Shown: positions 3,601-33,700 of the stretch, piece after piece | Numbering within the stretch: position 1 is the first letter of the stretch | Layout of the letters: each line of letters starts with the position of its first letter | NCBI RefSeq assembly: GCF_000003815.2 | Contig: NC_049981.1 | Span: 850,636 to 914,635 of the forward strand | Source: Branchiostoma floridae | Taxonomy: Eukaryota > Chordata > Leptocardii > Amphioxiformes > Branchiostomatidae | Length of the DNA: 64,000 nt | Direction: 5' to 3' | Position numbers and translations under genes: made by a program | The notes under the pieces: model-generated | Seen by the model: the letters and a program-made list of their open reading frames with translations, nothing else | The model's database searches: none | What the model was told of the DNA's origin: nothing

Positions 3601-4577
3601 TAGAATTCCCCGTGGCCAGAGGTTTTGTTCATCAAGCCTAAATGAGATTGAAGACGAGCGTCATTTTATCATGAATTGTTTACGATATGATGATAAACGC
3701 ACAAAACCTGCTCGAAAGAATTTGATATGTTCTGTTTGCAAAATAAATTCAACTATATTCGAGGAGGTGATAACCCTTTCTGTGTACAAATAGGCAAATA
3801 TATCAAAGAATGCTTAGACCTTGCAACCAGTAATGTAAATGATTCTATAGAGTCAATGTATTATGCAGATATTGATACTTATTCGTAGACACACATATAG
3901 ATAATTCATTGTATACACTTTTCTGTCCACATAGATATTTGTAGCAGACCTTACAAAAGTCGCCGTACTTTTGCAATTGTTTCGCCAATAAAGATGTCCA
4001 AAGTTATGTTGCCCTTCACAACATAGCTCTTTAAATACTTTCTGTGTATATCGTCAGTACTTGGTAGAACCGGATGGTGGCGCTCTTGATTGGTCCGATA
4101 GTGCTGGTGCCTGGTAGTAAAATACTTTCGCTGCCATTCACTACGTAGCTGTTTCAATACTATCTGACAGGGTGTATATCTTCAATCGAATAGCTACATA
4201 CATCTTAAAGCTTTATCCTGAGGCATGGACGTATTATTTTGGTGTGTCTGTGTGCTTGTTTCTGTAAGGTGTGAAATTTAGCATACGTGATATATGCTTG
4301 TGTTTTACAAATATGTCTATAGCTGCCGGGTTACTGCATAGCCAGCAGTTACCATGTGTTTAACAAACAATCAAATATAGAGTGAACAACGATGGGTCAC
4401 TGTTACACTACAACCCATTGAATGATCCCATTTTAATGTGTTGTGGGGCAATCAAATAAAAGTTAAAATCCCGAGTGCTCCAAAGGCATTGGATCTTTTC
4501 ATGGTTCGTCTTTTGACTTTGTTAAACGTTAGTCCATCCGACGGACTTACTTGCACACGCTTCTAGTAGAAAGCAAG

Positions 4578-5822
4578 ATGGAAAGGTGGTCTGGAGGAAA
4601 ACTAAGAGCCTACGAAGCAGCAAGAAAAGATGTTAGTGGCTCGAAGACGTCGCCGAGGGTTCAAGATTCAACTGAAACTATCCGAGGTTACGAACTGACG
4701 CGTACCCTCGGCCGAGGGGAGTTTGGTAAAGTCTACGAGGCGAGATTCGAGGACAATCATTATGCCATCAAGCAGATCAAGTTGAAGCGTAGTCGGAGAT
4801 CTAACTGGTTGGCCTTTCGGTCCCTCCACTCCGTCGGCCGCCTGCGGGCGGTGGGGGAAGAAGGTGCCGCCGCCGAACTCGAACCACTCCTGGCGCTAAG
4901 CAAGCTGAAACACAAGCACCTCGTGACATTCTACCAGGCTTTTATTGCACAGAAATCTATGTGGATTGTGTTAGAGTTGTGCCCCCTGGGAGACATGGAT
5001 GGTTTCGTCCTGTCAGAGGAATACGATCGTGCGTTGGACCTGTCAATCATGAGACAGGTGGCGGCGGGAATCGCGTTCCTCCACGAGAATGGTATCGTCC
5101 ATCGTGACGTCAAACCCGCCAATATTCTCTTCACTGGAAAGCCATGGAGTCCGGAGGCTAAGATAGCGGACTTCGGACTAGCAAAGCTGTACAATGCCGT
5201 TTCAGAGGGTGGGCATGGGGGGTTGGTGTCTGGGAAGGGGACGCCATGTTTTGTTGCCCCTGAAGTTGTCCAACCTCCTTACACCGAGAAATGTGACGTG
5301 TTCTCTATGGGCGTGGTATTCGCTGCTCTCACAGACCTCACAACAGTTGCAAGAGGGAAGTTGGGACTACTCATAAAAGGTGAACCGATTTTCGAGGCTC
5401 TTATTGAGAATCCCCAACTGAACCTGTATAGACGATTGATGACGTCACTCCCGTCAGGAAGCCCTCTGAAAGACCTGTGCTTGGCCATGCTGGCGTACAA
5501 GCCAGAAGACCGACCCTCAGCTGCGCATGCGCAAGAAGTCCTGTTACAAATACGCCATCAAGATTCCCAGCATGCCCCGCATCGGCAGGAGGATAATGAT
5601 GTTGGCGCATGCGCGGACGTCCTTGGGACGGTTTTGACGCTGCGACATTTGGAACTCACGGACAAGACAGAACATGACAGTGGGGACGAAGTGACGCAGA
5701 CTGAAGTACGTTGCCGTAACGACAAGAGCTTTTCTGACGAACATTATCATTCTGACGCGTCTGATGACGTCAGCAGTTCTGAGGACGACGAGCATGACGA
5801 AATCACATGTCGCTTGCTTTAA
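4578..5822 (+). CDS. STK35/PDIK1L-like serine/threonine protein kinase (single coding exon)
   Basis: The predicted protein has 414 residues, with a kinase domain at about 36-330. Visible motifs are the glycine loop GRGEFGKV (46-52), the ATP-binding lysine in YAIK (K65), catalytic HRDVKPAN (175-182), DFG (198-200) and APE (227-229), so it should be active. The GDMDGFVL segment after the hinge and the LIENPQLNL segment in the C-lobe match the STK35/PDIK1L (CLIK1) family, nuclear and actin/PDLIM1-linked kinases in vertebrates. The 80-residue tail is acidic, rich in Ser/Asp/Glu. I chose ATG 4578 because it has A at -3 and G at +4; the frame stays open upstream without another ATG. An AATAAA lies about 420 bp past the stop. 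The exact subfamily is inferred from motifs. Confidence 0.85.
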   Translation: MERWSGGKLRAYEAARKDVSGSKTSPRVQDSTETIRGYELTRTLGRGEFGKVYEARFEDNHYAIKQIKLKRSRRSNWLAFRSLHSVGRLRAVGEEGAAAELEPLLALSKLKHKHLVTFYQAFIAQKSMWIVLELCPLGDMDGFVLSEEYDRALDLSIMRQVAAGIAFLHENGIVHRDVKPANILFTGKPWSPEAKIADFGLAKLYNAVSEGGHGGLVSGKGTPCFVAPEVVQPPYTEKCDVFSMGVVFAALTDLTTVARGKLGLLIKGEPIFEALIENPQLNLYRRLMTSLPSGSPLKDLCLAMLAYKPEDRPSAAHAQEVLLQIRHQDSQHAPHRQEDNDVGACADVLGTVLTLRHLELTDKTEHDSGDEVTQTEVRCRNDKSFSDEHYHSDASDDVSSSEDDEHDEITCRLL

Positions 5823-6703: not shown

Positions 6704-7803
6704 ATGGCGGACCAACAAGGTCTGTCCAACAAAGACAAGGTTTGTCAGTTTTTTGCGTCCAATGCCGGGCTGCATTTTCGCTCGGCAGACGTGGCGGCTG
6801 CCCTGGGACTGGACGGGCGAAGCGTAGGGCAGCAACTCGCCCGGCTATGGCGGGCCGGCTTCGTAGAGAAGGTTCAGGTACGCCTAGGGCTTGTTGTTGC
6901 ATGTTGTTCTGCTCTATAGTTAGTAGTTGTGGAATTGTGCGACTTCCCCCCTCCCCAAAATGAAGACAAGCTTACAGAAATTTATTGCGTTTTCTGGTCC
7001 GCAAATGGTTATGGATACCGTTCTTGAACTTGTCGGGGTCTTAGATTTAGTTTATGAGGTAACGGAAGATTAGAGTAGCTAGGACGTTCAAGTGTGTTAT
7101 TGTTCGAGGGCCGTGCAAGTACACAAATCATTCAACGATAGGTAATTGTTATGGATGACATTCAGTACCAAGGACAGTGATGGAAGTGTTGTTGTTTCTA
7201 CTTATCCGTCGTTACCCTGAAATAGACAAGTACACGTAGCTATTTTAAGGAAAGAAAGTTAGGAAAATGTAAAGGTAAAGTTCAAATTCATCAGCAAAGA
7301 GTACAAGACACCAAAGCCTTTGTTCTAGCCGCCACATGCTCAAGTTGTATATGTATCTGTCTGTACATGTCAATAAGCATTCAATTGTTACAAACTGTGC
7401 TAGCCATCTTGATGCATTATGTATAATTGCCTTCTGCCCTGTTTGGGGCCAATTGTTTACTGCTTTTGCTGTTTGAATACTGCCATTGCTCCCAATAGAT
7501 CTGCTTAGAGATTGAGCAAAAGTGCTTTTCTAAAGGTTCCAAAGTAGGATTTGAACCCAGGACCTCCAGATCCTAAACATAGCAGCTTAGCCACTAATCT
7601 AAAATACCAGTGAGACTTTTTTTGTGTGTAAAACTAACTAAAAATCCTTTCCCTCTGCCCCACCCCAGACTACCCCCTATGCTACCTGGCGTATGAAGCT
7701 TCACACGTATCCCGGGAGAAACTTACACGGGCCGGCTGCGCCAAAACCCGCCATTCCGACACCAGCGAAGAAGTCTACAAGGGGGTCAAGATCACACGAG
7801 GAA
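6704..7803 (+). other. First Z-alpha-like winged-helix domain, split over exons 1 and 2
   Basis: Exon 1 (58 codons) supplies helices 1-3 with the pattern VAAALGLD...LARLWRAGFVEKV, and exon 2 starts with the beta-wing TTPYATWRMK. The wing matches the proline-containing wing of the Z-alpha family with its conserved tryptophan, and joining the exons in phase 0 restores the motif exactly. At the recognition helix the position of the canonical Asn is Gly and that of the canonical Tyr is Ala, so the usual Z-DNA contacts are missing. The rest of exon 2 is Lys/Arg/Pro-rich. Confidence 0.7.
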
Positions 7804-10800
7804 GTAAGAAATGTAAGATTTTCTGCAGTGTTGATATCAGTCCAATAATTACGTATCACATATAGAATGGTTGCAAGCATTTGCACAAATTTTATGACAT
7901 TCAACTTTTAATGAAAAATACACCATACCGTGGTAATCTCTTTACAAAAAATTGCAAATTGTAGGATAATGCAAGTCTTAGAAGACTATGCAAAATGCGA
8001 TCGACATATTGAAACCAGTGTCTTTCAATTTCTCTTTCTGGCTTTTGAACTTAATGTATCAGGGTATGGATTGCCATTGACAGAATTGCTAAATTTTCCT
8101 CTGTCAAAAGAATGCAGAATGTGTTATGGTGGTCTGCTATGTATTAATCCTCAATTTCAATGTATTGATCTCAAGTAAAGAGAATCTATATTGAAAAGTT
8201 CTGTCTTTTAAGAAAACATCAGATTCTCTGAATTTTTTTTTCTTTAAGATCTAGTTAACATTTGAAGGATGGAATAAGACAATCAGTCATAACTTAATTT
8301 TCAATCCCAGGACACTGGACACTGTCCCATGGGGTCACCCATGGTTCAAGGATGGAGAGAAGGGGAGAATGAGGAGCAAGAAGAAGAGGAAGAAGTCGGC
8401 CAGGAGAGCTCTCTAGTTGAAGGTAAGGAACAACTCAATAAAACTTAAGTTTAAACCAAGTTAAAACAGGATAATGCAAATATAGAACTTAATATGTCAG
8501 ATAATCATCAGAAATTTCAGATAGCAACTACTTGAATAATGTTATTGTCCGTGCCCCCAGTATTGTCCGTACCCCAAGTAGTGTCCGTACCCCCAGATGT
8601 GTTCGTACCCCCAGTAGTGTCCGTACCCCCAGTGGTGTCTGTACCCCCAGTAGTGTCCGTACCCCCAGTGGTGTCCGTACCCCCAGTGGTGTCCGTACCC
8701 CCAGTGGTGTCCGTGCCCCCAGTGGTGTCAGTACGCCCAGTGGTGTCCGTACCCCCAGTAGTGTCCGTACCCCCAGTAGTGTCAGTACCCCCAGTAGTGT
8801 CTGTACCCCCAGTAGTGTTGTACCCCCAGTAGTGTCCGTACCCCCAGTAGTGTCCGTACCCCCAGTAGTGTCCGTACCCCCAGTAGTGTCCGTACCCCCA
8901 GTAGTGTCCGTACCCCCAGTGGTGTCCGTACCCCCAGTGGTGTCAGTACCCCCAGTGGTGTCCGTACCCCCAGTAGTGTCCGTACCCCCAGTAGTGTCCG
9001 TACCCCCAGTAGTGTCCGTACCCCCAGTAGTGTCCGTACCCCCAGTAGTGTCTGTACCCCCAGTAGTGTTGTACCCCCAGTAGTGTCCGTACCCCCAGTA
9101 GTGTCCGTACCCCCAGTGGTGTCAGTACCCCCAGTAGTGTCAGTACCCCCAGTAGTGTCCGTACCCCCAGTAGTGTCCGTACCCCCAGTAGTGTCCATAC
9201 CCCATGTAGCCTCCTAAACCACAGTTATGTCAGATGTGGATTATCACACCAACATGGTCATTATCAAAAATAATGTACAACCTGTCTGGTTGCTTTAGAT
9301 AGATAATATGCTGGTAGAAATAAACACACAATACGCAAAAAGATTTGCTGATAATTAATTTCATAAGACCATATGAATAATGCCCAAGGTAAGTTTTGGG
9401 AAAATGTTGTGACCCAATTCAAGAAACTGGTGTTGAAAGGTATACTCTCAACACCCTGTATCAGAATCTGTGTCTGAATCAGGTTGAACTTCTTTGTAGC
9501 AGGTTGAACTATATGCACTTGTTATATATAGTTGTGACTACTAGTTAACCTAAACTATTGCAATATTTCCAAGGTTTCTAACTTTCAGTGTTGGATGTAA
9601 GAAGAAAGTTTAGCGTCGTATTTCATCATGGGCAATAGGCCTTGGAATGTTTTTTTTTTTTCTAATGGCAACAAAGATGAATGGTGCTACACTCTGTTCA
9701 AGTTTTAAGCATAATGTGAGCTATCTAGTGAGGATTCTCCTACAGTGCTTGGTGGCAAATTGTTCAGCTCTATGGTAGGTCTAGGAAAATTTGCCCCAGT
9801 ATTGCATTAAATGTTATTATGATGCTTACAAACTTAGTGTTTCTGAGTTTTCTAAACAAAGCCCTTTTCTTCTTTTTTTTAGTACCCAGTGTTAGGATGC
9901 CAGCTTTCCACAGTGTTTCTTCAAAACCTCCACCTTCAACAAGAAGAGAAGCAACATCATCCCAAGAGAACATCTCAGTTCAAAAAAAGGCTGCTGAAAT
10001 TCCGACAACCAAGAGGAAATTAGGACGCTTGCCCGGTAACAAACTGTCAGCAACAACACTTCAGGTTGGACTTAGAGGAAGCAAAACTGGGAAGACAACT
10101 GCAGGGTTTTGCCAGAAAACTGCATGTGTTGCAACTGGACTGAAAAGAAAGGTTTCTTCAGATTCAAAGAATGCAGACCAAGGAAGGAAAGGGAGAGTAA
10201 AGAAAACAGTGTCACAAACCCAAGGTAGAGAAGTCAACAGTGACAGATGTTTGTCAGATTCTGAGTCCTCATTAACAGAAATTGTTGGAACTGTACAGAA
10301 AAGGAAAGTTGTAGCTGAGACAACAATTGGAAACCAAGGAGTGAAAGGAAAAGTGAAGAAAAGAAAGTCACAACCTGCACTGAGAGAAGACAGCATTGAC
10401 AGAAGTAGTACAGATTCTGAGTCCTCTTCTCCAAAAGTTGTTAGAACTGTACTAAAATGGAAAGTTGGAGCTGAGAAAACAAAAGGAAACCAAGGAATGA
10501 AAGGAATAGTGAAGAAAACCACGTCACAAACCATGGATAAAGACTGCAGTGACAGAAGTGGCGTAGATTCTCAGTCCCAAGTACAGAACAAGACACAGCT
10601 TATGCCTACCACAGTGTCATGCCAAAGAACATCTACAACTGCAGTGAAAAAGAACACAGACAAAGTACAGAAAAGGAAAGTGATCAAGAAAACAATGACC
10701 CAAACAACATGTAGGGAAGGTGAGGGTGGTGCAGGTGGCATACCTGGTTCTCTACAGAACAAAGCGCGACTAATGCCTGTCACCCTTGCACCCACATTGA

Positions 10801-13800
10801 TCAAACCAGCAGGGAACATGGAAACCAAACTGTTAAACTTCATTCAGGAAGCCCAGGGCATGTTGGTGATGACAGGTAACGATGTAGCGAAGGCCCTGGG
10901 TTCCAAGCCCAAGGAGACGCACAGACTGTTACTCCACATGCAACGGACTGGTCAGGTGAGGAAGGTTTGTGACAAACCCACACGGTGGATGATGTTAGGT
11001 GGTGGCCAGGGTAGAAGGGGGCTTGCTAGGAAAGGACAGAGACAAGGATCGCCTAGCACTAAGTATCAATCAATGTCTATCCCAGCTTCCAGGAATCTCC
11101 ATAGTGGAACAGCAACTTCTACCCAGGCTTCCAGGAATCTCCACAGTGAGACAGCAACTTCCACCCTGACTTCCAGGAATCTCCATAGTGGAACAACAAC
11201 TTCCACCCTGACTTCCAGGAATATCCATAGTGGAACAGCATCTTCTACCCAGGCATCCAGGAATCTCCATACTGGGACAGCAACTTCTATCAAGACTTCC
11301 AGGAATTTGCATACTGGTACAGCAACTGAAGGATCAAATTCCAGGACAAGCCACAGTGTCAGAGCTCAGTCAGGTGATGGTCTAGTGGAAGAGAGACAGA
11401 CATTCCTGACATTACCCAGTAAAGAAGAAGAAGAAGATGATACAGAGATAGCCTTCACATCCACTCAATGGTCCATAGAGCCTGAGAGATGTCTTACCAC
11501 TGAAGAAGAAGAAGACGAAGACATCAGCTGTGTTTCTCATGAGCAAGAGAGTATCCTCCTTGAAGATGTGGAATTCTGTANNNNNNNNNNNNNNNNNNNN
11601 NNNNNNNNNNNNNNNNNNNNNNNNNNNNNNNNNNNNNNNNNNNNNNNNNNNNNNNNNNNNNNNNNNNNNNNNNNNNNNNNTCAAGAGACCACTTCTCACA
11701 AAGACCTAAGAACTCAGATGACAGTTTGTCCAAAACCTGAAGACTCACATCAAGGCAAAGGGATGTCTTTGACCGTTCCACCTTCCAAGGCTAAAAACAA
11801 CAAACTTGACCCAAACAAAGACGACACTCTCAAGGACGAACAAGGTTCTAAGACACAAAGAGCAGGTACTAGCAAGATACCGCCTCACATCCTTAAGCAC
11901 TCAGTCAGCTACTTTGCCAGTGCCACTACAGAACCTAACACCACACCTAAACCTCGCCGTGCTTTCAAAATCACAAGAAATGACCGCACAGAACAAGACA
12001 GATCAGAAAGACCTTTTGTGAGGGCAACAGACAGTGACGTCTTCAAAGATCCCTTGGCTGATATAGATGTCGCGGTCGACTTAACACTTAACAAGACACA
12101 TCTTAAGAGTGGAGCACACTGTTGTAGTAGTATGTGTGACAATAACAGAGGTCTTCTACACTCGCCGCTTAGTTCCTCCATCAGAAAACCTCCCTCTCGT
12201 CCACCTAAACTTTACCCACATACAGCAGGGGAATCTGCCAGAGAGAAGCGCATGGTCCGAATGTTTGGAAGCTGCGATAGCCCACCTGTACTTGTCAAGC
12301 AAGGTGAAAATATCAGACGTGACAGCACAGAGGGTCCTGCCTTCAGAGCTGCCAGAAGAAATCTTTACCCTTGGCTGGCTTCTGAGACAAGTAAACAACA
12401 TCAGCAAAGTAGTACTAGTATTTCATCGAGGCCTGAACAGTCTCTGTACAACGAGGATGAAAACAGGTGTTTCAGTTCAGGACTTGTTGAGAATGATGCA
12501 TCCCTTACTGCTGGAAGTTCACATGGTTCCCAAGCAGATGCTGAAATGGAGATAGAACAACAGTCCACATGTTGCTTTGCAGGGAACTCAAATGAGTTCA
12601 ATAACAGAGAGACAGCATCAAGAATAGGTGGACAGAAGTATAATTCAGAGAAGGGAGGCTTCATGGCTGGAAGTGATGGCTGTAAGCAGAGCACCTGTTC
12701 CTTGTCACTTGTTGAAGATGTAGGGACAGATCCTAGGAGAGCCCGTGGGCAAGGAGTGTATGCAGAACAACATGGCAACAGCAGGGTAACCAGTAGTGAG
12801 GTCATAGGGCAAGCAGGTCAAAGGTCGGGCACTTTGCTTCATGCTAGAGGTCACAGCAAAGACAGAACAGGTCAAGGCACTAGATCAGGATCTTCACTCG
12901 CTTCCCAAGTTAGACCAAGAGAGGGAAATGTGTTTGGACACTGCTGCAATACAGCTGCAAACAGTAAGGTGGCATCAGTGCACTGTAGGGGTGCTGTCCC
13001 TAGTGCTGAACAGCTAGTCTACAATACTACTAGAAACAGCGAAATGGCATTGGCGCATAGAAGAGGTGCTGTCCCTGGTGCTGAAAAGTTATTCTGCAAT
13101 ACTACTACAAACAGCAAGATGGCGTTGGCGCACGGCAGAGGTGCTGTCCCTGGTGCTGAACAGATTGTCTGCAGTGCTGCTACAAACAGCAAGATGGCAT
13201 ATACACACTGTACGGGTCCTGTCCCTGGTGCTAAACAGTTCAACAGTCATCCACGTAGCTGTTGCGCAACTGTTGCAGCATTGCACACACATCATGATGA
13301 AAAAGAGGCAGCACGTGCAAAATCAGAACACGGACAAAGACATGTCCAAATGCAGAGCAGAGTCACAGCTGCAGATGTACATTGTAAAAACAAGTCTAAG
13401 AACGAAGACTCTAACAATACACTTACTGCGGAAAATATCCATCTTTGTCATGATGGCAACGTTACTGCTGGAATGAGGCAGTACAGAAAGAGAGACAACG
13501 CAGGGAGACTGCTAGCACAGGCCATCAAGTCAGCTGTGAGCCCTCTGAATGTACCTGGTGGGAGAAAGACAACTTGCAACATAAGAGATGTCAAAAGGAC
13601 TGAGGACAGAAGTGAGGGAATGAGGCATACTGTTCTTCAGTGTGGAGCATCACAACATGTGAAAAGTGATAGTATGCTGCAACCTGCTAGTGAAAGTCCT
13701 TGTCTGAGCTTGAGAAATGAAACCCATCAGGATCAGAGGGGAAACAAAGGACAAGGAAACCTTCAAAGTTTTGAAGCTGGGAAAGCTGTGTCAAGTGTCA

Positions 13801-16800
13801 GCACGGAAAGGATGGGTTCCTATGTCCCAACAAAACAACATAGAACCACAACTGTTGACAACAAGGTACCAGTACACTATTTGGGTGCTGTCCCTAGTAC
13901 TGAACCCTTAGTTGGCCATCCAGGGGGCTATCCTGAAACTGTTAAGGCTTTGAATATGTGCTCGGTTGGCAATATAGAGCAAGCTGGACATAGGCCAAAC
14001 TCAGAGAGACTGCCAAAGTCAGAGAGCATCCACCAAGTAACTGAGACCAGGAATTCTGCCTGTTTAGAGGTGCCAACACCACATGATGCGGCCACCAGGT
14101 CTGTATGTAGACAAGAAGAAATGTCGTCGAGATTCAAAACTGATCTTGAGAAGGAGAGAACAAAGGCATCATGTCCCCAGCCAACAGAAGATTGCTGCAG
14201 TGGACAAGAGGATGTCTCCCCTGTAAAGTCCAGAAGGATTTCTTTGGGCACAGAGGTGACAGTGACACACACAAGAGCTACACACACTGCAAGGAACAAT
14301 GATGAGAACTTGTACAAATCTGACAATGCTTCCGTTCCCATAGAGCAAATATCACGTGCTATGATGTCAAAATCTCAGAATCATACGACAGCTATGCACA
14401 CAGAAAGGAGCAATGCAGGGAACTTGTCCAAATCCGACAATGCTTGTTTTCTTGGAGAGCAAGCATCACAGGCTACATTGTTAGAAACACAAAGCGGAAG
14501 ATTGTACAAAGTTTGTGATGTCTCACGTAAGAGTGGAAAGACAGTAAGCACTACAGGTGCTAAAGGTGTTGAACCTTCTTTGACAAGAGAGAAAAACACT
14601 CTGGTTAGGCTGGATGCATCACAGAATGCAGAGGAACTTATGTCTGAGAAATTCCTACAGATTGAGAGTGCAAGATGGCAGAGACCAAGATCACCCAAGA
14701 GCTTCTTAACAGACTATTGGTCTAAAGCAGATTCCAAGGATGCAAAACGTTTTGATGCAGAGAATAAGACTGTAGACAGCTTCAACTCCAGACTGCTTGC
14801 CTACCCGACCACCAGTGTAGAGATCATTGACAGTGAAGAAGAGTGCCCTAGTGATCTGTCAAAGAACTGCAGTAAGAGTAAGATCTGTATTAGCAAGGTT
14901 TCATTTAAAGACAACGCAAACCTTACAGATGAAAAATCTCAGATTGTTCTAAAAGAAGAACCTAAAACTTTCCACACTACAAAAACACAAACCAGCCAAG
15001 AATTTGTGCACTCTTCACAAGCGATGACCAGTAAGAGTATTGACCAGAGATATTCTCTCAAGAACTCACCTACCAAAGTGCAGTCAGATGAAGATGATGT
15101 AGTGGTCAGTCTTGAAGAAAGGGCTGGTGGTCAAGCTGTTTCCAGTCCCATCGGTCCATTGGAACAGAGTACTTGGACACAGCCAAAAGCTTTGTACACT
15201 TCAAATGAGACAGAGCCAGTGGAGCAAGGAGAGACAGAGGCTGAAGAAACTGGTGGTCAAGAGAAGGCACCTGTGGGTGAGGGTAAAGGTCATGATGGGT
15301 CAGAGGTTGGCGAGGTCATCATACATCAGAGTTCGGTCGCCAGGGTTACGCCACAGGGAGGCAGACAAGTGGCAACGTTGGGTAAGTTCTGTTTGTGCTG
15401 CCTATTTTGTTCCAATCATCTATGTACAGTATTCAATATTTTACATGTCACCAATACAAGTGATTGTGATGACGTCACAATGACATACTCACAGGCAGAA
15501 ATCAGGTGAAGGACAAAGATTACTTTACATATTGTAATTTGATATGGTAATTAGGATATTTATAATAATCTATTCTGTTGACACCCTGATAGGCACCAGT
15601 CATAAAATACCCTGGATGTAAGCAAAATATTACTCATATTGCATAATCTGAAGCCATTGTATTGTCTTATGTTTACCTAATTATTTTGAGGGGTAGTTTG
15701 TACAATGTATACCCTTAATGTATGCCCTTAAAACCACCGGGAATATTTTTGAATTTTGCAGTATATATGAAATGTGTGGGTAATTAGCACAGAAAGGGTT
15801 AAGATCAGCATTCTAAAAGTCTATGATATGCCCCTACAGACCAGCCCAGTGGTACACCCCTACTGCAGGGACATCCCATAGTGCAGCTGAACGAGCTGTG
15901 TCAGAGGAACCGCCTCAGGATCTGCTTCCAGGACATTTCAGTCACTGGACCTGCACACAGGCCAAGGTACATGTATATCTGTTATGATTATTATATTGGA
16001 CTAACAATTCATCTGTTGGTAATGCTGTACAGACAGAGCAATTATCATCACCCACATCTAACTAACTCACTTATCACTCATTTACTCACTTAATCACAAT
16101 AACTCACTCTCACTCACTTATCACCCACACATGAACTCTCGCTCGTTCGCTCTCTCTCTCTCACTCTCACTCACTCACTCACTCGCTCACTCACTCACTC
16201 ACTCACTCACTCACTCACTCCCTTACTCGCTCGCTCACTCACTTACTCAATCCCTCACTCCCTCGCTCACTTTTTAGATCTTAGATGAACTTGAACAGAA
16301 ACAATATCTTTGTAGGTTGTCCTGTATGTCTGGATATAACATTTTCCTTGCTTGCTGTCTTCTACGTTCCTCTAATTAATTCCTCCTCATAAAAAGTGTT
16401 GTTTATCAAGTTCTGATCCCTTGAACCTAGCCTTGCTTTCACTGTTGCCTTTCCTTCCTTCTTTCCTTGTTTTTTCCAACTTTCCTTCCCTCTCTACCTT
16501 CCTCGTCCCTTACCTCAACTAACTCTGATTTCTTCTTGTCTAGACGTCTCTTAATATGTAGTTTGTGTGACAAAAATTCTCACTGAACAATTGGCACTAT
16601 TGATCCCCTACACCTGTTTTACCAGTAAGCTAGAATTCTGGCAGAAGCAATGCATTGATTTAGCCAAGCTGTGTCTAACCCATGGAAGGATGTCCCTGTG
16701 GCTCAACTGGTAGCATGCTGAAAGTTGGTTCAGCTCCTGGTTCCAATTAGTAAGTAAATGGGAGACCCCGGGTTCATTCTGGGTGGGGCATCTAAGCTTC

Positions 16801-17094
16801 ACATTGCAGTTGCAATGCCTTTTGGAAGAAACATGAATTTTCAAATGGGGATGATCCTATGTTAGAGGACTGGTGCCAAGCTTGAGCAGTTCAAGGGAGA
16901 TCCACGTCTATTGACTCTTAGACTAACAAAAAAGAAACCTTCTCCCTGCACCCCCCCCCCCCCCCTCCAGGGTTCAGTTAGCAGCAGTAGTTGGAGAGAG
17001 AGCGTTCCAGGCCGAGGCCAGCTCCAAGAAGGCAGCTCGCAGACAAGCAGCCCAGAAGGCTCTCCAGGCCTTGTACCAAGAGGGGTACAAGTAG
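6704..17094 (+). CDS. Large Z-alpha-like x2 / dsRBD protein (six coding exons, one assembly gap)
   Basis: Coding exons read 6704-6877, 7669-7803, 8311-8422, 9883-15381, 15840-15966 and 16971-17094; all junctions are GT-AG and phases agree (0, 0, 1, 1, 2), ending in TAG at 17092. The product is about 2,056 residues, counting the 100-N gap as drawn. The order is: winged helix of Z-alpha type (about 8-73), acidic linker, Lys/Ser-rich repeats, second Z-alpha-like helix (about 453-513), a very long Ser/Thr/Gln/Lys-rich segment without recognisable folds, and a single dsRBD at the C-terminus. Z-alpha plus dsRBD is the architecture of ADAR1, but no deaminase, kinase or other enzyme domain follows before the stop. 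Known Z-alpha proteins sense Z-form nucleic acid in innate immunity; that role here is inference. The central exon of 5.5 kb is unusually long for this window. Confidence 0.8.
7525..7612 (-). repeat. tRNA-like SINE head or tRNA pseudogene
   Basis: On the minus strand an A-box-like TAGTGGCTAAGCTGC is followed about 35 bp later by a B box GGGTTCAAATCC. The arms do not close into a good acceptor stem, so it is more likely a tRNA-derived SINE head in intron 1 than a functional tRNA. Confidence 0.4.
8545..9206 (+). repeat. 18-bp minisatellite, about 37 copies, in intron 3
   Basis: The unit is GTGTCCGTACCCCCAGTA, with variants at the A/G following CAGT and at C/A/T in GTC(C/A/T)GTA. Two copies are 17 bp long (GTGTTGTACCCCCAGTA, near 8814 and 9065) and lie 251 bp apart, consistent with thirteen 18-mers plus one 17-mer, which suggests duplication of a multi-unit block. 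The array yields long open frames on both strands only because 18 is a multiple of 3; no splice sites support coding. Confidence 0.95.
10200..10570 (+). repeat. In-frame degenerate repeats, about 55 residues, Lys/Ser-rich
   Basis: Within the long exon, three diverged units share the order SDR..DSES, V..TVxKxKV, xGNQGxKGxVKK and SQ. They are basic and low-complexity and probably disordered. They lie between the two winged helices. Confidence 0.6.
10818..11000 (+). other. Second Z-alpha-like winged-helix domain inside the long exon
   Basis: Residues about 453-513 of the predicted protein show the same fold pattern: METKLLNFIQEA, then VAKALGSKPKETHRLLLHMQ, then TGQVRKV and a wing ending KPTRWMM. 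The wing tryptophan and a helix-3 arginine are kept, whereas the canonical Asn and Tyr positions read His and Leu. ADAR1 also carries a second Z domain (Z-beta) with altered contacts, so this may be a protein-interaction or altered-specificity module. Confidence 0.65.
11085..11320 (+). repeat. In-frame 48-bp coding repeats (SRNLHSGTATSTxT)
   Basis: Six units of about 16 residues with the core SRN(L/I)H(S/T)(G/E)T follow one another directly after the second winged helix. They are Ser/Thr-rich with no charged runs. Such an array is prone to copy-number change. Confidence 0.75.
11581..11680. other. Assembly gap (100 N) inside the long exon of the Z-alpha/dsRBD gene
   Basis: Exactly 100 N, a conventional placeholder. 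The frame is open on both sides with the same composition, so the missing bases are coding; their true number is unknown and the protein length is therefore provisional. It falls just after acidic, Glu-rich sequence. Confidence 0.95.
12950..13260 (+). repeat. In-frame repeats of about 27 residues (RGAVPGAEQ...NSKMA)
   Basis: Four tandem units share the order H.RGAVPxAE, C/YNTT and NSKMA; a fifth, isolated remnant (YLGAVPSTEPL) lies near 13880. Another pair of about 40-residue repeats with KSDNA cores lies at 14280-14480. The central region thus grew by internal duplication. Confidence 0.65.
16101..16270 (+). repeat. (CTCA)n microsatellite with CTCG variants, intron 5
   Basis: Imperfect tandem CACT/CTCA tetranucleotides run for about 170 bp between the two dsRBD exons; a further pyrimidine-rich stretch continues to about 16500. 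Confidence 0.9.
16683..16815 (+). repeat. tRNA-like SINE head in intron 5
   Basis: TGGCTCAACTGGTAGCA resembles an A box and GGGTTCATTCTG a degenerate B box about 70 bp on. Pairing of the acceptor arms is poor. This is best read as a degenerate tRNA-derived SINE. Confidence 0.4.
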
Positions 17095-18258
17095 GGAGAT
17101 GGGTACCTGGATACTCACTTTAGTGCACAAGTTAATTGTTTGAGTGTCTTCATGTTTCAAGATTTGTTAGAGGAAGAACCTGACGCACACCTGGAAGGGT
17201 GCACATTTGTATGTGGATAATCTTATGTAGAAAATTAAGGAAAAGACGAGACTAAGTCACATTCAGTTTTGTAGACAGACACTATCAATAGTTAATAATG
17301 TGGCAAATCACACATTGACCAATCACTAAGTTACAAGATTCATCCCTAAGATTACGCTGTACAAATGTCATCTACAACATTTTTTGCTTGGTTTTATTAG
17401 AAAAACATAAAAGTTTAAGTCATGATAAAACTGTTTTAGGCCATAAGTGATGTAAATCAAAATAATACTTTCTACCTATGATCGGTTTAAAAGCAAGAAG
17501 CTTTGTGTGCATTTCATGCAGACTAATAATGTAGGAGTTACATTCTGAATCCTTATCCTTGCATAGGGAAAGCAGACTTGCATCAAGAACAAAGATGAGT
17601 TCCGTCCAGGTCCTAGTTCCAGGATCATTGCTGAAACCAGGAGTATCTCTTTGATGTTTGTGATCCATTTCATGCACAGTGACATCATACTTTAAGTATG
17701 GAGAATCATGACTGATGCACACAACTATAAACTTATTAGATAGTTTGGACTTCCTATCAAATGTGGCTAGAAAGGTTTGTTCAAATGCTGTTCTGTTAAC
17801 AGATTTTGTACTCTAAACTAGGAAGCTGTTATCATGATAGTATCATACACTGTAGTTACAAATTCCAAGGTTTACTGTATTTCAGTTTTTGGTTCCAGTT
17901 CACCAAATGGTTCATTTCATGTTGGGGCACAAGTTAGGATATCAGGAGTATATAATGCTTTCTGGTTATATGCACAAGTTGTAACCATTATCATAGTTTC
18001 GGTTACCATATAAACATGACCATGCAGTGGTTCTATTTTGTGGTAAAAGGGTGAAGAAGGTTTTCCCAATGTTAAACATTTTGCAACAGAACAATCACTT
18101 AGCACTGTACAGCAACATTTTTGTTAACCCAATGTTACTTGCAAAAGGGAAAAATAAACCACTGCAAATTAAGACTTCATGTTTACAGTAGCTTACAATC
18201 TTCTTACAAGGAAACTATATGTCCAAGTATAGATATCACAAAGCAAAAATCATGTTGC

Positions 18259-18276
18259 AAAATAAAGATTTATTTT
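18259..18276. terminator. Palindromic pair of poly(A) signals
   Basis: AAAATAAA and TTTATTTT flank a two-base centre, so AATAAA reads on both strands within 14 bp. It lies between two converging genes and could end transcripts in both directions. Confidence 0.4.
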
Positions 18277-21743: not shown

Positions 21744-24700
21744 CTGTGTGGTGGTGAAAAGATCTTGGAGTCAAATTCTTCTACATTTCATTAAAATTCC
21801 CTTTCCTAAAGCTATTTGCATGCTACCATTTTCTTTGTTATTTCACATGACAATACATCAAGAAAAACCTACTAGTAGACAGAACATGTTCTCAGTTAAA
21901 AACAGAAATTCTATCACACGATGTGTGGAAACCTGCACACATCGTGGGGAAAACCCCACACATTGTGTGGAAACTCCACACATCGTGTGGAAACTCCACA
22001 CATCGTGTGGAAACTGCAATCTGTCCTATGGCGATTGATGAGCAGCGCGTGACGCTTGTCCGTGTAAACAGCCCCCGTGACGCACGGCGGCATCACGTGT
22101 CACGTGTTGCCTCCAGGGTTGGGCGTACGGCAGACATTGGGCAGTTTGCGGCATCACTGAATGTGCCGATGTCGTAGGCAGCCCATTTTCGCTTTGCAGT
22201 AGGTCAGGGGTCATATGCGAATGCCTGAGACCTTTCCCACCCTTGATTCAACCCACGCCACACTCGTCTGGTCACCAGGGTTCACGGCTGTGCGCTGCAG
22301 TGTGATGTGTTGTGGTGCGCCATGAGAGTCGCAGTGGGTTTGTGTGAACCGAAAACTATCCTAGGCTACTGTCCTAGGGGAATCATCATATGTCGCGCAA
22401 ATTCCCTCCTATGAACCGGCCTTAGTGTGTATGTTCTACCTTTGGTCTTTTGTATGTTCTACATGTAACGTTAGGTATAATCCATCAAAAGAGTGCTGTA
22501 TTTAACTAAACATTCAGTAGATCTATAGATACATGCCAGGTATCCTGACATTCCTGATAACTCCAATTCTCTTGTCTAGATTTCATCTGCTTCTAACAGG
22601 TATTTTAGGTAATACAAAATCTAGCACAAAAGGAGGATAGTCGTGACACCAAGAAATTTGATATTTTTGTGTAGCCTCTTATTCTTGTCTAGGACTGAAC
22701 TAATCTTTGAACTCTTTCCATGCAATCACTAATAACACTCCATTGACACAATACTTTCACAAGGGAAACATCTTTTGACAAATGCAATAAAGTGATTTAA
22801 AACCATGTTTCTAAATCCCTCCAAAATTTAAAGTTCTAAGGCAGTCCCAATAAGTGGCTCACAGTTTCTATTTCGTCATTTCAGTTAGCTTAGAAAGTAA
22901 TCATAGGGGCAGGAGACAAGAAACACTCTTGTTTTGTGTTCCTTGGTGATCTTTGATATCTTGTTTAGTACTCCTTGGAAAGGATGAATGCAAAGCAAAA
23001 AAGATTTGTACAGAAATGTAAGCTGTCCATAATGTTACAGCATTGTAAAATAAATGTGAAATACATCATTGCTGCTTTCTTTTCAGAGAATTTGGAGCCC
23101 TAAAAGTAAACATTTTGTTTCCAAGCTGGTCTACAGGCTAATCTGGCCTCCCATGGAGAAAGAATCATCTTGTCCCTGTTAGTGCTGTCATTAGTAATTG
23201 GCCATGAAATTAGGCTAATCTCTTAAGTACACAATGTTCTCTGGGGGCTGGATCTAGAAACCTGTCCCTGGGGTAACATCATATATTCCAAGCACCACCA
23301 ACAAAGCAACTGTAACTGTCTGTACTACTCCTATGCCGGTTTTCAAATTCAAGAGAACACATGCCTATATACCATAATACCCTGGCTCATTGTTTACAAT
23401 AGATTGGTAGCAGATGTTCAAGGCAGAGCCAGCCATGACATACTGGACATGGTGTATCAGATATCATTGCTATGTATTCAAGATCTAATCTGCAGAATGT
23501 TGGTAAAAAAAATTCTGACCAGACAGGTTTCTCTGACATCCACTACCAGTATACCCCAATTTGGGGTGAAGAGCTGGGCTGCTCATAACATTACAATCTT
23601 TCACCCCAAGATCTGCTTGGAGATCTGTTTTAGCTTCTGCCTTCCGAAGTCTAAGTTTGTATAGAAGCTGATCATAATAATAATAATAATAATGATAATC
23701 ATCTGGTGTATTTTGCCAGCCAGTAGGTACCCCAAGTATGAGTAATGAGGCTGTTTAACGTGGTCGAGGCACCTCCTCGAGCACTGAACCCCCGTTTTAC
23801 GTCCCTCCCGGAAGACGATTTCGTGGAAAACTTCGTGAGGCTACAGCAATCCGGACGTCCTTGGGTGGGGGACTCCCATCCAAGTACTGTCCGGACCGCT
23901 CGTTGCTTAACTTCTGAGATCGAGGGATCGGGTGTACCTACGCGCCACGTGGCCGTAGCTGAAAGGAGTGGATAAAAACAGGACAAAGGCAGGATTCTAT
24001 TCCCACAGATAGAATCCAGTTTCCCAAAACTGTATACTACCACTACACTATTATGGGACAACTGTACAAAGGAAATCTTCATTCTCTCCCCTCACCCATT
24101 TTCTCCATCATGTGTTTAGAATCCATGCAAGAGTCAACGTTTGATTTAATACATCTGCTTATCCTTAAAAGTTTTTTTCCAGACTCTGTGAGACTCCATC
24201 AATTACAAAATATAGTTATCGTGTCTGCACATGTCTAAAATGCATTTGACATCATCAAGTTATTGTGACAAAGTAAAGAAGAAATTCTGTACAAGGTACA
24301 GTATTCAGTTTCTTCTGTAAACACAGGGAATAGCCATCCTGGTGTACTCTCCAAGCAGAGGTTAGGCTCCGGTTGTTTTTACGTCTTTTTTTAGTCGCTT
24401 TTATAGGGCTTTCTATTTTGTATTGTTTCTTGAAGTCCGCCAGCCAAAGTTAGGTTTTGACAATACAAGATACAATACAAAACAGAAAGCCTGATAAAAA
24501 CGACTAAAAAAAATGTAAAAAAAAACAACCAGAGCCAAACCTCTGCTTGGAGAGTATTCCTGATGTTCCCAATTAGGAAACCAGCAGGGAATTATCAGGC
24601 CATCCACCAGAGTGGCCAAACCAGGTCAAAGAAAGGTTACCATACAGCTGGGTGTATTATGTTTCATACACTATGTCCCTCCAAGCCCTATCACTGTATG

Positions 24701-30700: not shown

Positions 30701-33700
30701 ATAAGGCCTGGTCCTTTGTTATAAGCACCAAATAAAACCAACAAATGAGTGAAGCGAACAAGGGGTGGTTTTATAAGGTGGTAATAGCAAAGGACCAGGC
30801 CTTATGACACCATACACAATGAGAAATAGGTGGGTCATTAACATATTTAGCATGTAGCCTTAGCTACTGAAAATGACACATTCAAGTCTTAGAGATACAA
30901 ATTCCAATAGAACTTGTATCTCTTGAATGTAATAAATACAAACTTTAAAGTTTATCTGTGTTGGTAGAAGTCATTATTGAACTAGTTAAATTGTAATTTC
31001 CAACACACCCAAATTTTCGACTGAACAGCTCCAGCTGCTGTGACATCACGTTATGCAGATTGAACACGTGACGCAATATGCAGTGGATCATAGGGTTCAG
31101 GTTCCCTGAGCACAGACGCCCGAGTTCAACAACCTCAGAACTTTCCCAACATATTCACATAGAATCACCGGGTCATTCGGTTTCACTGGACAAAGTTAAA
31201 ATCTTGGACATAGAGCCAAACTTTTTTGCTAGAGAGATCAAAGAAGCCATCTACATCAGAGCTTTACAACCATCCCTGAACAGAGATGGTGGGCGCTATA
31301 GTAGTTTAGTTAAATACTGCACACTTTTGATGGAATATACCTAGAACATACATAAGACCGAAGGTAGAACATACTACCACCGGTTCATAGGAGGGAATTT
31401 GCGCGACATATGATGATTCCCCTAGGAAAGTAGCCTAGGATAGTTTTCGGTTCACACAAACCCACTGCGACTCTCATGGCGCACCACAACACATCACACT
31501 GCAGCGCACAGCCGTGAACCCTGGTGACCAGACGAGTGTGGCGTGGGTTGAATCAAGGGTGGGAAAGGTCTCAGGCATTCGCATATGACCCCTGACCTAC
31601 TGCAAAGCGAAAGTGGGCTGCCTACGACATCGGCACTTTCAGTGATGCCGCAAACTGCCCAATGTCTGTCGTACGCCCAACCCTGGAGGCAACACGTGAC
31701 ACGTGATGCCGCCGTGCGTCACAGGGGCTGTTTACACGGACAAGCGTCACGCGCTGCTCATCAATCGCCATAGGACAGATTGCAGTTTCCACACGATGTG
31801 TGGAGTTTCCACACGATGTGTGGGGTTTCCACACGATGTGTGCAGGTTTCCACACAATGTGTGGAATCTCCACACATCGTGTGATAGAATTTCTGTTTTT
31901 AACTGAGAACATGTTACAGTCTGTTCTAAAACAAATCAAAGCAAAGTGGCACCGGGTTCAGCACACAAAAGGAGCCATTCTTGCACTCAGTCTGACCATG
32001 ACAGAGAAGGCAGACACTGTGTACAGCTTTTACAGGTTCATAGTACCCGTGAAATTCATCTTGCTCTTTTTGACAAGCACAAGGAATAGTGGACCACGGC
32101 ATAATGTCCTGACTGTAACCATTTTCAGTAATGCACATGTCAGGTGACAAACAACTGCTAAGATTCAGACTCACAATTGGTCCTGAGGCAAGGTAGTAAA
32201 CCACATGCAGGATTACTTACAGTAACTGTAAGTACTGTTGTTACAGTTCAGTTCATCCTCTGTAGAGTGACACCACGATTACGTACTACGCTACACACTA
32301 AGTCTCTAGAAACATGCAACAAACTGTCCTCACCCCCATTGCTGTTACAGTAGTACTCGTAGGTTCCCCCACTGTCCCATGTGTGAGAGACTCCGTCCCA
32401 GCCTCCTGCTACGATCAGATGTCCATTAGAAGCCAGGCTCAGAATGGGGGAGGGCTGAGGTGGGGTCAGGGTCCGCTTAGCTCTGGAAAACAGTACATCA
32501 TAGTCTTAAAACTTGTACACAATGCATTAATACTATTAAAGACAATGTTTCAGGGACCATCCTTTGGATGATTGCTGTATGGATGAGAAAATCTAATCCT
32601 AACCACATTGAAGAATGTTGTCCCAAATGTGAATAAGTTTACTGTATATCCCCCCACATCACCTTAAATGACTTACAGTCATTTAAGGTGATGTGGGGGG
32701 AATTTTTATTATACAGTAAACTTAGTCACATTTGGGACAACATTCTTCATAATTTATATGTAAATACTATGTAGCCCTTTTTGCCCTTTACGGTAAGGTG
32801 ACTAACTGTCATCACATACATCTGGCTGGATATATAAATATATATATTATGTAACTATATGCAAGTTATATATAATATCATGTACAAAGAACTTTGCTAT
32901 ATCCAATGATTTACCAAACCTGATGAAATGTTTCATGGATGCTCTAGATATTATTCAACAATAGAGAGCATACTGAACCTAGTAAACAAGCATTTAAAAC
33001 TATAATAGATAAATGAGCTTAAATGCAGGAAGAAGATACTGAATTCTCAGACTTACTTCAAAAAGGTCTTGTCTTTCTGCTGCGTGACGGCCCACACCTT
33101 GACAGACCCGTCATCAGAGGCTGTGGCAAACGTCGCACCCTTCACAAAGCATGCAGCAGTCACAGGTCTGCCTGCATGGCCCTGGAAACAAACATTTAAA
33201 TATGATATGACATACTACCTATAATTCTAATAAACTAAAAACCAAGCCCAAATATACAGATAGACATAGACAATGTATGTCCTGTGTGCCATGCTTGGTT
33301 ATATAACTGGAACAGGACATTCCCCGGAAGTAACATCTATTAAATATTGGGCATGTGAAGTGCAGGTTTGAATGTAACTATCAAAGGGAGGGGTTCCTCA
33401 GAGAGAGTGACAATACTTGCCATAAGTGAGTGAGTGAGGGGATCCTTAATAATTAAGTACATTATACAGGTGGTCACTAGTAAAAGGTTGACAGTATCAA
33501 TGGCCTCATGGTCCTTTTGTAGACTGAGTCATAGTACAAATGGCCGGACAGTCCCCCTGTAGAGGTGGTTGTTCAGTAACAATTTTTTATTGTATGTCAA
33601 TGGCCAGGTGGTCACTTAATATATACTATTAGGTTTAACTCAGACTATAAGATGCACTATCATGCACGTCATACAGAATTTTCTTAATCACCTATAATTA

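What the first reader, a model, noticed from the sequence alone, without database searches (positions are those of the whole stretch)
6704..17094. Deaminase-less Z-alpha x2 / dsRBD giant protein: candidate new nucleic-acid sensor or ADAR antagonist
Six phased exons join two Z-alpha-like winged helices to a C-terminal dsRBD across more than 1,800 low-complexity residues. Known Z-alpha proteins pair the module with a deaminase (ADAR1), kinase (PKZ), RHIM (ZBP1) or viral dsRBD (E3-like). A cellular Z-alpha plus dsRBD protein without an effector domain would be a non-catalytic competitor or scaffold. The domain calls are read from motifs; the role is inference.
Basis: partly seen in the sequence, partly recalled or inferred. 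Interest (0 to 1): 0.8.

Follow-up and report, generated by a model that had tools for sequence, protein, structure and literature searches.

The report
Deaminase-less ADAR1-like dsRNA-binding lancelet gene
A lancelet-like genome carries a long gene that looks like the front half of the RNA-editing enzyme ADAR1 without its catalytic part: it probably still holds double-stranded RNA, but it has lost the contacts that would let it read left-handed (Z-form) nucleic acids.

Summary
Six GT-AG exons at 6704-17094 join in phase into a 2056-residue frame (a 100-N gap read as X): two winged helices of the Z-alpha family, about 1820 disordered-looking linker residues, one C-terminal dsRBD, then a stop. 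Pfam z-alpha hits only the second helix (21.2 bits, cut-off 21). A profile of canonical Z-alphas finds both, and nothing else, in the window. The dsRBD is clear (50.6 bits).

None of the genome's 14 deaminase matches is on this contig. The same genome has a true ADAR1 elsewhere with the same order plus deaminase; its dsRBD is the window dsRBD's best-scoring lancelet relative, with an intron in the same arginine codon.

Both helices lack the Asn173 and Tyr177 equivalents that read Z-form (Gly/Ala and His/Leu). Published Z-alpha-like domains without them neither bound nor converted Z-DNA or Z-RNA (PMC11298590). Best reading: a catalytically empty, Z-blind, dsRNA-binding ADAR1 relative, probably a competitor or scaffold; a new variant of a known kind. 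Transcripts and orthologues could not be checked.

The parts
6704..6877 (+). Exon 1: start codon and most of the first Z-alpha-like winged helix
   Evidence: In-phase chain; 4.6e-5 on its own against a canonical Z-alpha profile
7669..7803 (+). Exon 2: wing of the first Z-alpha-like helix (TTPYATW) and start of linker
   Evidence: Joined with exon 1 the profile E-value improves to 2.1e-7; phase 0
8311..8422 (+). Exon 3: short acidic linker exon whose 112 bases bring exon 4 into phase
   Evidence: no homologue tested
9883..15381 (+). Exon 4: long linker with the second Z-alpha-like helix and three tandem-repeat arrays; contains the 100-N gap 11581-11680
   Evidence: 1925-codon stop-to-stop frame, null maximum 284; repeats of 156, 42 and 75 bp, all multiples of three
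10815..10994 (+). Second Z-alpha-like winged helix
   Evidence: Pfam z-alpha 21.2 bits, cut-off 21; 24.9 bits in the genome-wide search; phmmer to human ADAR1 Z-alpha in PDB, E 1.3e-5
15840..15966 (+). Exon 5: first half of the dsRBD
   Evidence: dsrm 50.6 bits for the joined exons 5+6; intron in the same Arg codon as lancelet ADAR1
16971..17094 (+). Exon 6: second half of the dsRBD and stop codon TAG (17092-17094)
18153..18266 (+). Two AATAAA hexamers (18153 and 18261), candidate poly(A) signals
   Evidence: Pattern match only

Best explanation
The locus encodes a catalytically empty relative of ADAR1: two Z-alpha-family winged helices, a long disordered-looking linker and one ADAR1-type dsRBD, ending before any deaminase. 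Shown by sequence: the anatomy, no deaminase match on the contig, the best dsRBD score with the lancelet's own ADAR1, and loss of the Z-reading residues in both winged helices. Inferred: the protein binds ordinary dsRNA through its dsRBD; the winged helices no longer read Z-form and serve, like ADAR1 Z-beta, as structural or protein-contact modules; by occupying or gathering dsRNA without editing it, the protein competes with or tunes ADAR1 and dsRNA sensors.
For: Both winged helices score as Z-alpha family: 28.6 and 23.5 bits with a lancelet-only profile against 18.0 for the best PDB chain not named or known to me as Z-alpha, LexA (chains 4hob and 2l4m are unnamed there and recalled as Z-alpha). 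Asn173/Tyr177 equivalents are Gly/Ala and His/Leu, Trp kept. dsRBD 50.6 bits with the usual contact stretches (recalled). Closest by local score among the rows compared: lancelet ADAR1 132, human ADAR1 dsRBD2 106, dsRBD1 105, C11 102. In the genome search the places after the window itself are, in order, C11, C16, C2, C237 and C17, the first four next to deaminases. Same intron codon and phase as ADAR1. Lancelet ADAR1 has the same order, with a single dsRBD, plus deaminase exons. None of 14 deaminase matches on C3. Z-alpha-like domains without Asn/Tyr do not bind Z-form.
Against: No transcript and no orthologue seen. One 100-N gap. dsRBD trees are weak: grouped with ADAR1-type dsRBDs in two of three builds (94/85 with two rows misread; 90/85 with seven rows left out), not in the third, and never as sister of the lancelet ADAR1 alone, though that is not rejected (p-AU 0.21 and 0.26). 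The first winged helix is closer to a single Z-alpha at the end of C237 than to ADAR1, so the gene may be a patchwork. Several known PDB Z-alphas (PKZ, ZBP1) score below LexA with that profile, so the margin is not a sharp border. Deaminase exons that are short or diverged could escape a six-frame search. Competition with ADAR1 is untested.
Confidence: 0.5

Rival explanations
1. A true Z-nucleic-acid and dsRNA sensor or competitor: the winged helices still bind Z-form by other contacts.
For: Z-alpha fold and wing Trp kept in both; first Pro of the wing kept in both; two copies plus a dsRBD, as in ADAR1.
Against: Asn173 and Tyr177 equivalents are gone in both, the second Pro too; published Z-alpha-like domains without Asn/Tyr failed to bind Z-form, and ADAR1 Z-beta needs its Ile changed back to Tyr for partial function (PMC11298590).
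Confidence: 0.12
2. Winged helices used as ordinary B-form DNA-binding or purely structural domains in a nuclear DNA- and dsRNA-binding protein whose role has nothing to do with editing.
For: The first helix gets only generic winged-helix hits in Pfam (TrmB, LexA, MarR_2, HTH_24; E 0.06-0.18); a basic KKRK cluster in the first linker.
Against: Both domains score above any non-Z-alpha PDB chain listed with the Z-alpha profile.
Confidence: 0.12
3. Gene-model artefact: two genes, or a decaying ADAR1 copy, joined by a wrong exon chain or by the 100-N gap.
For: Chain derived from splice motifs alone; other in-phase chains exist; 100-N gap in exon 4; decayed exon-1 copies elsewhere; linker repeats give no clear sign of constraint.
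Against: 1925-codon open frame against a null maximum of 284; five GT-AG introns in phase; both domain halves rejoin correctly at exons 1/2 and 5/6.
Confidence: 0.14

Closest known systems
Lancelet ADAR1 (this genome, C237:60-76 kb, minus strand)
   Same: Two Z-alphas, then a single dsRBD, in the same order; best-scoring dsRBD relative (44% over 71 columns); intron in the same Arg codon
   Different: Has deaminase exons, Asn/Phe and Asn/Tyr in its Z-alphas and a short linker; here no deaminase, no Asn/Tyr and about 1820 linker residues
ADAR1 Z-beta (human)
   Same: A Z-alpha fold that lost the Tyr and does not bind Z-form (PMC11298590)
   Different: Z-beta lost the Tyr (Ile335); here both domains lost Asn and Tyr
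Poxvirus E3
   Same: Z-alpha plus dsRBD with no enzyme (PMC11293857, passages)
   Different: Viral, short, one Z-alpha that acts on ZBP1; no close sequence kinship shown here (E3 dsRBD 21.4 bits against 78.4 for human ADAR1)
ADAD and squid ADAR1
   Same: ADAR relatives with lost catalysis (ADAD; PMC9989829, passages) or with one dsRBM and an added serine-rich region (squid ADAR1; PMC10278661, passages)
   Different: ADAD keeps an inactive deaminase domain, squid ADAR1 a deaminase domain; here none is found
Branchiostoma floridae LOC118428708, Z-alpha + RIP-type kinase (PMC9573974, passages)
   Same: A non-ADAR Z-alpha protein of a lancelet
   Different: Has a kinase and no dsRBD tabulated; the matching gene here (C13) has a canonical Z-alpha

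Membership tests
Z-alpha (Z-form-binding) domain | Z-alpha fold by profile | tested here: met
   Second helix 21.2 bits, cut-off 21; both by canonical profile, E 2.6e-8 and 2.1e-7; first helix fails Pfam z-alpha
Z-alpha (Z-form-binding) domain | Asn173 and Tyr177 equivalents | tested here: not met
   Gly/Ala and His/Leu
Z-alpha (Z-form-binding) domain | Binding or conversion of Z-DNA or Z-RNA | not testable with these tools
   Needs CD or binding assays
ADAR1 | Adenosine deaminase domain | tested here: not met
   0 of 14 genome-wide PF02137 matches (16 candidates scored) on this contig
ADAR1 | ADAR1-type dsRBD | tested here: inconclusive
   Best local score with lancelet ADAR1 and same intron codon, but tree support under the starred level and one of three builds does not group it
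dsRNA-binding (dsrm) protein | dsRBD over the curated cut-off | tested here: met
   50.6 bits, cut-off 23
PKZ / ZBP1 | Kinase domain or RHIM on the same protein | tested here: not met
   No kinase or RHIM family at E<=10 in the four pieces scanned (HMMER filters drop most weak hits, and the 36 residues of exon 3 were in piece 1); the kinase ORF at 4533-5822 is a separate upstream ORF

The most novel reading that the evidence does not exclude
A cellular counterpart of E3: an animal built its own non-enzymatic Z-alpha-fold + dsRBD antagonist from ADAR1-type parts, in which the winged helices recognise nucleic acid in a new way without Asn/Tyr, or pair directly with ADAR1 to hold it off dsRNA.
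Probability: 0.12. Interest if true: 0.75.

Novelty: new variant of a known kind. Interest (0 to 1): 0.42.

Why it matters
If transcripts and orthologues bear it out, this is a natural ADAR1 relative without an editing domain: a test of what the N-terminal half of ADAR1 does by holding dsRNA alone, in a chordate lineage outside the vertebrates. It also shows Z-reading residues lost in two Z-alpha folds of one protein while the folds are kept. A 2023 review (PMC10523160, abstract start in the search listing) counts only ADAR1, ZBP1 and PKZ as eukaryotic Z-alpha proteins; besides ADAR1 this genome has at least three further loci with Z-alpha-family domains (the window, the end of C237, and C13), of which the kind on C13 is already tabulated in print.

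Tried and rejected
Considered and dropped:

Deaminase exon further on: no A_deamin match on the contig, and no further Z-alpha or dsRBD ORF passes in the window. Short or diverged exons could escape.

Intron position as proof of ADAR descent: weakened, because several lancelet dsRBDs are split near there. Of the split dsRBDs looked at (ADAR1, C9, C8, C17 and C10), only ADAR1 shares the codon and phase with the window; C8 is one residue off.

My note that the wing intron of the C13 gene is shared with the window was wrong by about five residues (corrected).

A second whole copy of the gene: not found. Two decayed exon-1 copies at C235 and a 70-bp exon-4 fragment at C3:1.19 Mb; exon 4 was searched with 300 of its residues and with the 90 of the second helix only.

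Synonymous and nonsynonymous counts among the linker repeats are mixed (pN above pS in the 156-bp array, below in the other two) and prove nothing.

The first dsRBD tree and score list had the two C16 rows read on the wrong strand, so C16 is not ranked there. The trees were rebuilt with them corrected, C17 and C8 rows trimmed and C7 and C8 left out (20 rows), then also without five C12 rows (15 rows).

Structure prediction was never available. Orthologues in other lancelets: no animal genome but the window's own is on hand.

Papers: nine searches of the held library listed no paper that I recognised as reporting this gene. I saw passages of six papers (PMC11293857, PMC11298590, PMC9989829, PMC9573974, PMC6651903, PMC10278661) and one whole section of PMC11298590; the rest as listings only. 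Subscription journals and preprints are mostly not held.

Full report
What is there. The window is C3:850636-914635 of a genome of 513 Mb in 431 contigs. Its size (recalled) and a Z-alpha/RIP-kinase gene like a published Branchiostoma floridae entry make it a lancelet, B. floridae or very near; no tool names it. Exons 6704-6877, 7669-7803, 8311-8422, 9883-15381, 15840-15966 and 16971-17094 join (entry phases 0, 0, 0, 1, 1, 2) into 2056 codons and a TAG at 17092-17094. Several other in-phase chains exist; this one was picked for its splice sites and complete domains. Donors match 6-8 of 9 consensus positions and acceptors have 7-11 pyrimidines in 11 (consensus recalled). The exon-4 frame is 1925 codons from stop to stop; 100 first-order Markov sequences of 64 kb had a mean longest frame of 179 and a maximum of 284. 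A 100-N gap at 11581-11680 lies inside it.

Domains. Pfam finds dsrm in the last piece (50.6 bits, cut-off 23), z-alpha in exon 4 before the gap (21.2 bits, cut-off 21), nothing in the 1233 residues after the gap, and only weak generic winged-helix hits in exons 1-3. To test the first winged helix I built a profile from four Z-alphas of this genome and the human ADAR1 Z-alpha. Over 1246 sequences (1245 six-frame ORFs of 30 residues or more and the joined exons 1+2), three pass: the exon-4 frame (E 2.6e-8), joined exons 1+2 (2.1e-7) and exon 1 alone (4.6e-5); the next is 0.25. With the four lancelet domains only, PDB chains of known Z-alphas score from 68.3 bits down to 14.8 (human Z-beta 34.8; PKZ 18.3 and 17.3), and the best chain that is not a Z-alpha, LexA, 18.0 (two unnamed chains recalled as Z-alpha). 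The window domains score 28.6 and 23.5. In shuffles, 0 to 2 of 500 reached the local score with each of six partners. So both are Z-alpha-family winged helices, the first far diverged.

Z-reading residues. In the alignments Asn173 and Tyr177 are Gly and Ala in the first domain and His and Leu in the second; the Trp is kept in both, the second Pro in neither. The four comparison domains have Asn/Tyr (two), Asn/Phe (one) and Ser/Tyr (one), so the Asn is not absolute even there. Romero and others (PMC11298590; passages, one section) use Asn173 and Tyr177 to part Z-alpha from Z-alpha-like, and found that their Z-alpha-like domains neither converted nor bound Z-form. Those were bacterial, so the carry-over is an inference. 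It makes a Z sensor unlikely here.

The dsRBD. It keeps LNEL, GPAH and SKKAAR, the usual contact regions (recalled). By local score it is nearest to the joined dsRBD of the lancelet's own ADAR1 (132), then human ADAR1 dsRBD2 (106), dsRBD1 (105) and the C11 dsRBD (102) (C16 rows misread there). In the genome search, of nine places, two are the window itself and the rest are C11, C16 (two), C2 (two), C237 and C17; all but C17 lie near a deaminase. Trees are weak: the window groups with ADAR1-type dsRBDs in two of three builds (94/85, with two rows misread; 90/85, with seven rows left out), not in the third; it is never sister to lancelet ADAR1 alone, but that is not rejected (p-AU 0.208 and 0.255). 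The intron lies in the same Arg codon, phase 2, as in ADAR1.

The true ADAR1 and the missing deaminase. On C237 (minus strand) are two Z-alphas in one 491-residue frame (74.5 bits, two stretches), one dsRBD in two half-exons (2 of 342 minus-strand ORFs at 60-80 kb pass a dsRBD profile), then deaminase exons. The genome has 14 deaminase matches at E<=0.001, on C16, C2, C237, C6 and C11, none on C3 (16 candidates scored). The window gene has the order of this ADAR1 up to the dsRBD, and then stops. Two AATAAA hexamers follow at 18153 and 18261. ORFs on the minus strand from about 61.5 kb down look like a long convergent TEP1-like gene (name recalled, not tested).

How it most likely works. Shown: a frame with one dsRBD that looks intact, two Z-alpha folds without the Z-reading residues, and no enzyme found. 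Inferred: it binds dsRNA; the winged helices are Z-beta-like structural or protein-contact modules; the long linker lets one molecule span or gather RNAs; the net effect is competition with, or tuning of, ADAR1 editing and dsRNA sensing. I put 0.5 on this reading as a whole, about 0.85 on the anatomy, and 0.12 on a real Z sensor.

Mixed origin. The first winged helix is closest to a single Z-alpha at the end of C237 (score 83, next 50; also in the genome search), the second to human ADAR1 Z-alpha (86) and lancelet ADAR1's first Z-alpha (83, and 78). The gene may be a patchwork of ADAR1-type parts rather than a truncated ADAR1. Only decayed exon-1 pieces at C235 and a 70-bp exon-4 fragment on C3 were seen as copies.

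What is known. ADAR1, ZBP1 and PKZ are the usual Z-alpha proteins (PMC10523160, listing only); squid ADAR1 has one Z-alpha, one dsRBM and a serine-rich domain (PMC10278661, passages); ADADs are inactive ADAR relatives (PMC9989829, passages); pox viruses join Z-alpha and dsRBD (PMC11293857, passages). In nine searches of the held library I saw no report of a cellular Z-alpha-fold + dsRBD protein without a deaminase; most hits were seen as listings only, and the library lacks most subscription journals and preprints.

Limits. No transcript, no second lancelet, no structure model, one unsequenced gap.

Noticed in passing
G000:C13:8536820-8536960 (L023) and L056:3388-5579: A canonical Z-alpha (Asn, Tyr, Pro-Pro, Trp once its second exon is joined) is followed a few kb on, same strand, by protein-kinase exons that read as RIP-like (by eye). 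This fits the Z-alpha + kinase protein LOC118428708 already tabulated for B. floridae (PMC9573974, passages; Pfam).
   Followed up: partly
G000:C237:156069-156197 (L003): A single Z-alpha (33 bits) with Ser in place of Asn and a Pro/Gln-rich tail, near the end of its contig; its gene could not be followed. It is the closest relative of the window's first winged helix.
   Followed up: partly
G000:C235:209700-209822 (L068:831-898 and 1201-1322): Two decayed side-by-side copies of the window's exon 1 (about 73-77% DNA identity in pieces), with an ORF that reads like retroelement polymerase nearby (by eye).
   Followed up: partly
window 8546-9203: An 18-bp minisatellite of 36.7 copies in intron 3; as the unit is a multiple of three, long frames such as 8505-9083 stay open. 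Whether it is ever spliced in is unknown.
   Followed up: no
window 4533-5822: A single-exon-looking protein-kinase ORF (Pkinase 155.6 bits) just upstream on the same strand; it recalls the STK35/PDIK1L kind (recalled, not tested).
   Followed up: partly
window about 19400-61524, minus strand: ORFs that read as a long TEP1-like NACHT/WD40 gene convergent with the window gene (name recalled, no family search run).
   Followed up: no
G000:C237:68579-68707 and 67570-67677: Two separate matches to the same start of the deaminase profile (positions 2-44 and 3-38) in the lancelet ADAR1: possible alternative exons.
   Followed up: no
G000:C16:8882836-8883810 and G000:C2:4631521-4632495: Two full-length deaminase matches (329 of 329 positions) in single open frames, each with two dsRBDs in one frame about 2 kb away: ADAR-type genes with unusually few introns.
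   Followed up: no
window 21923-22015 and 31784-31883: Two arrays of about 20-bp units (GTGTGGAAACTCCACACATC kind) that look like inverted copies of one another, each within a longer repeated stretch.
   Followed up: no
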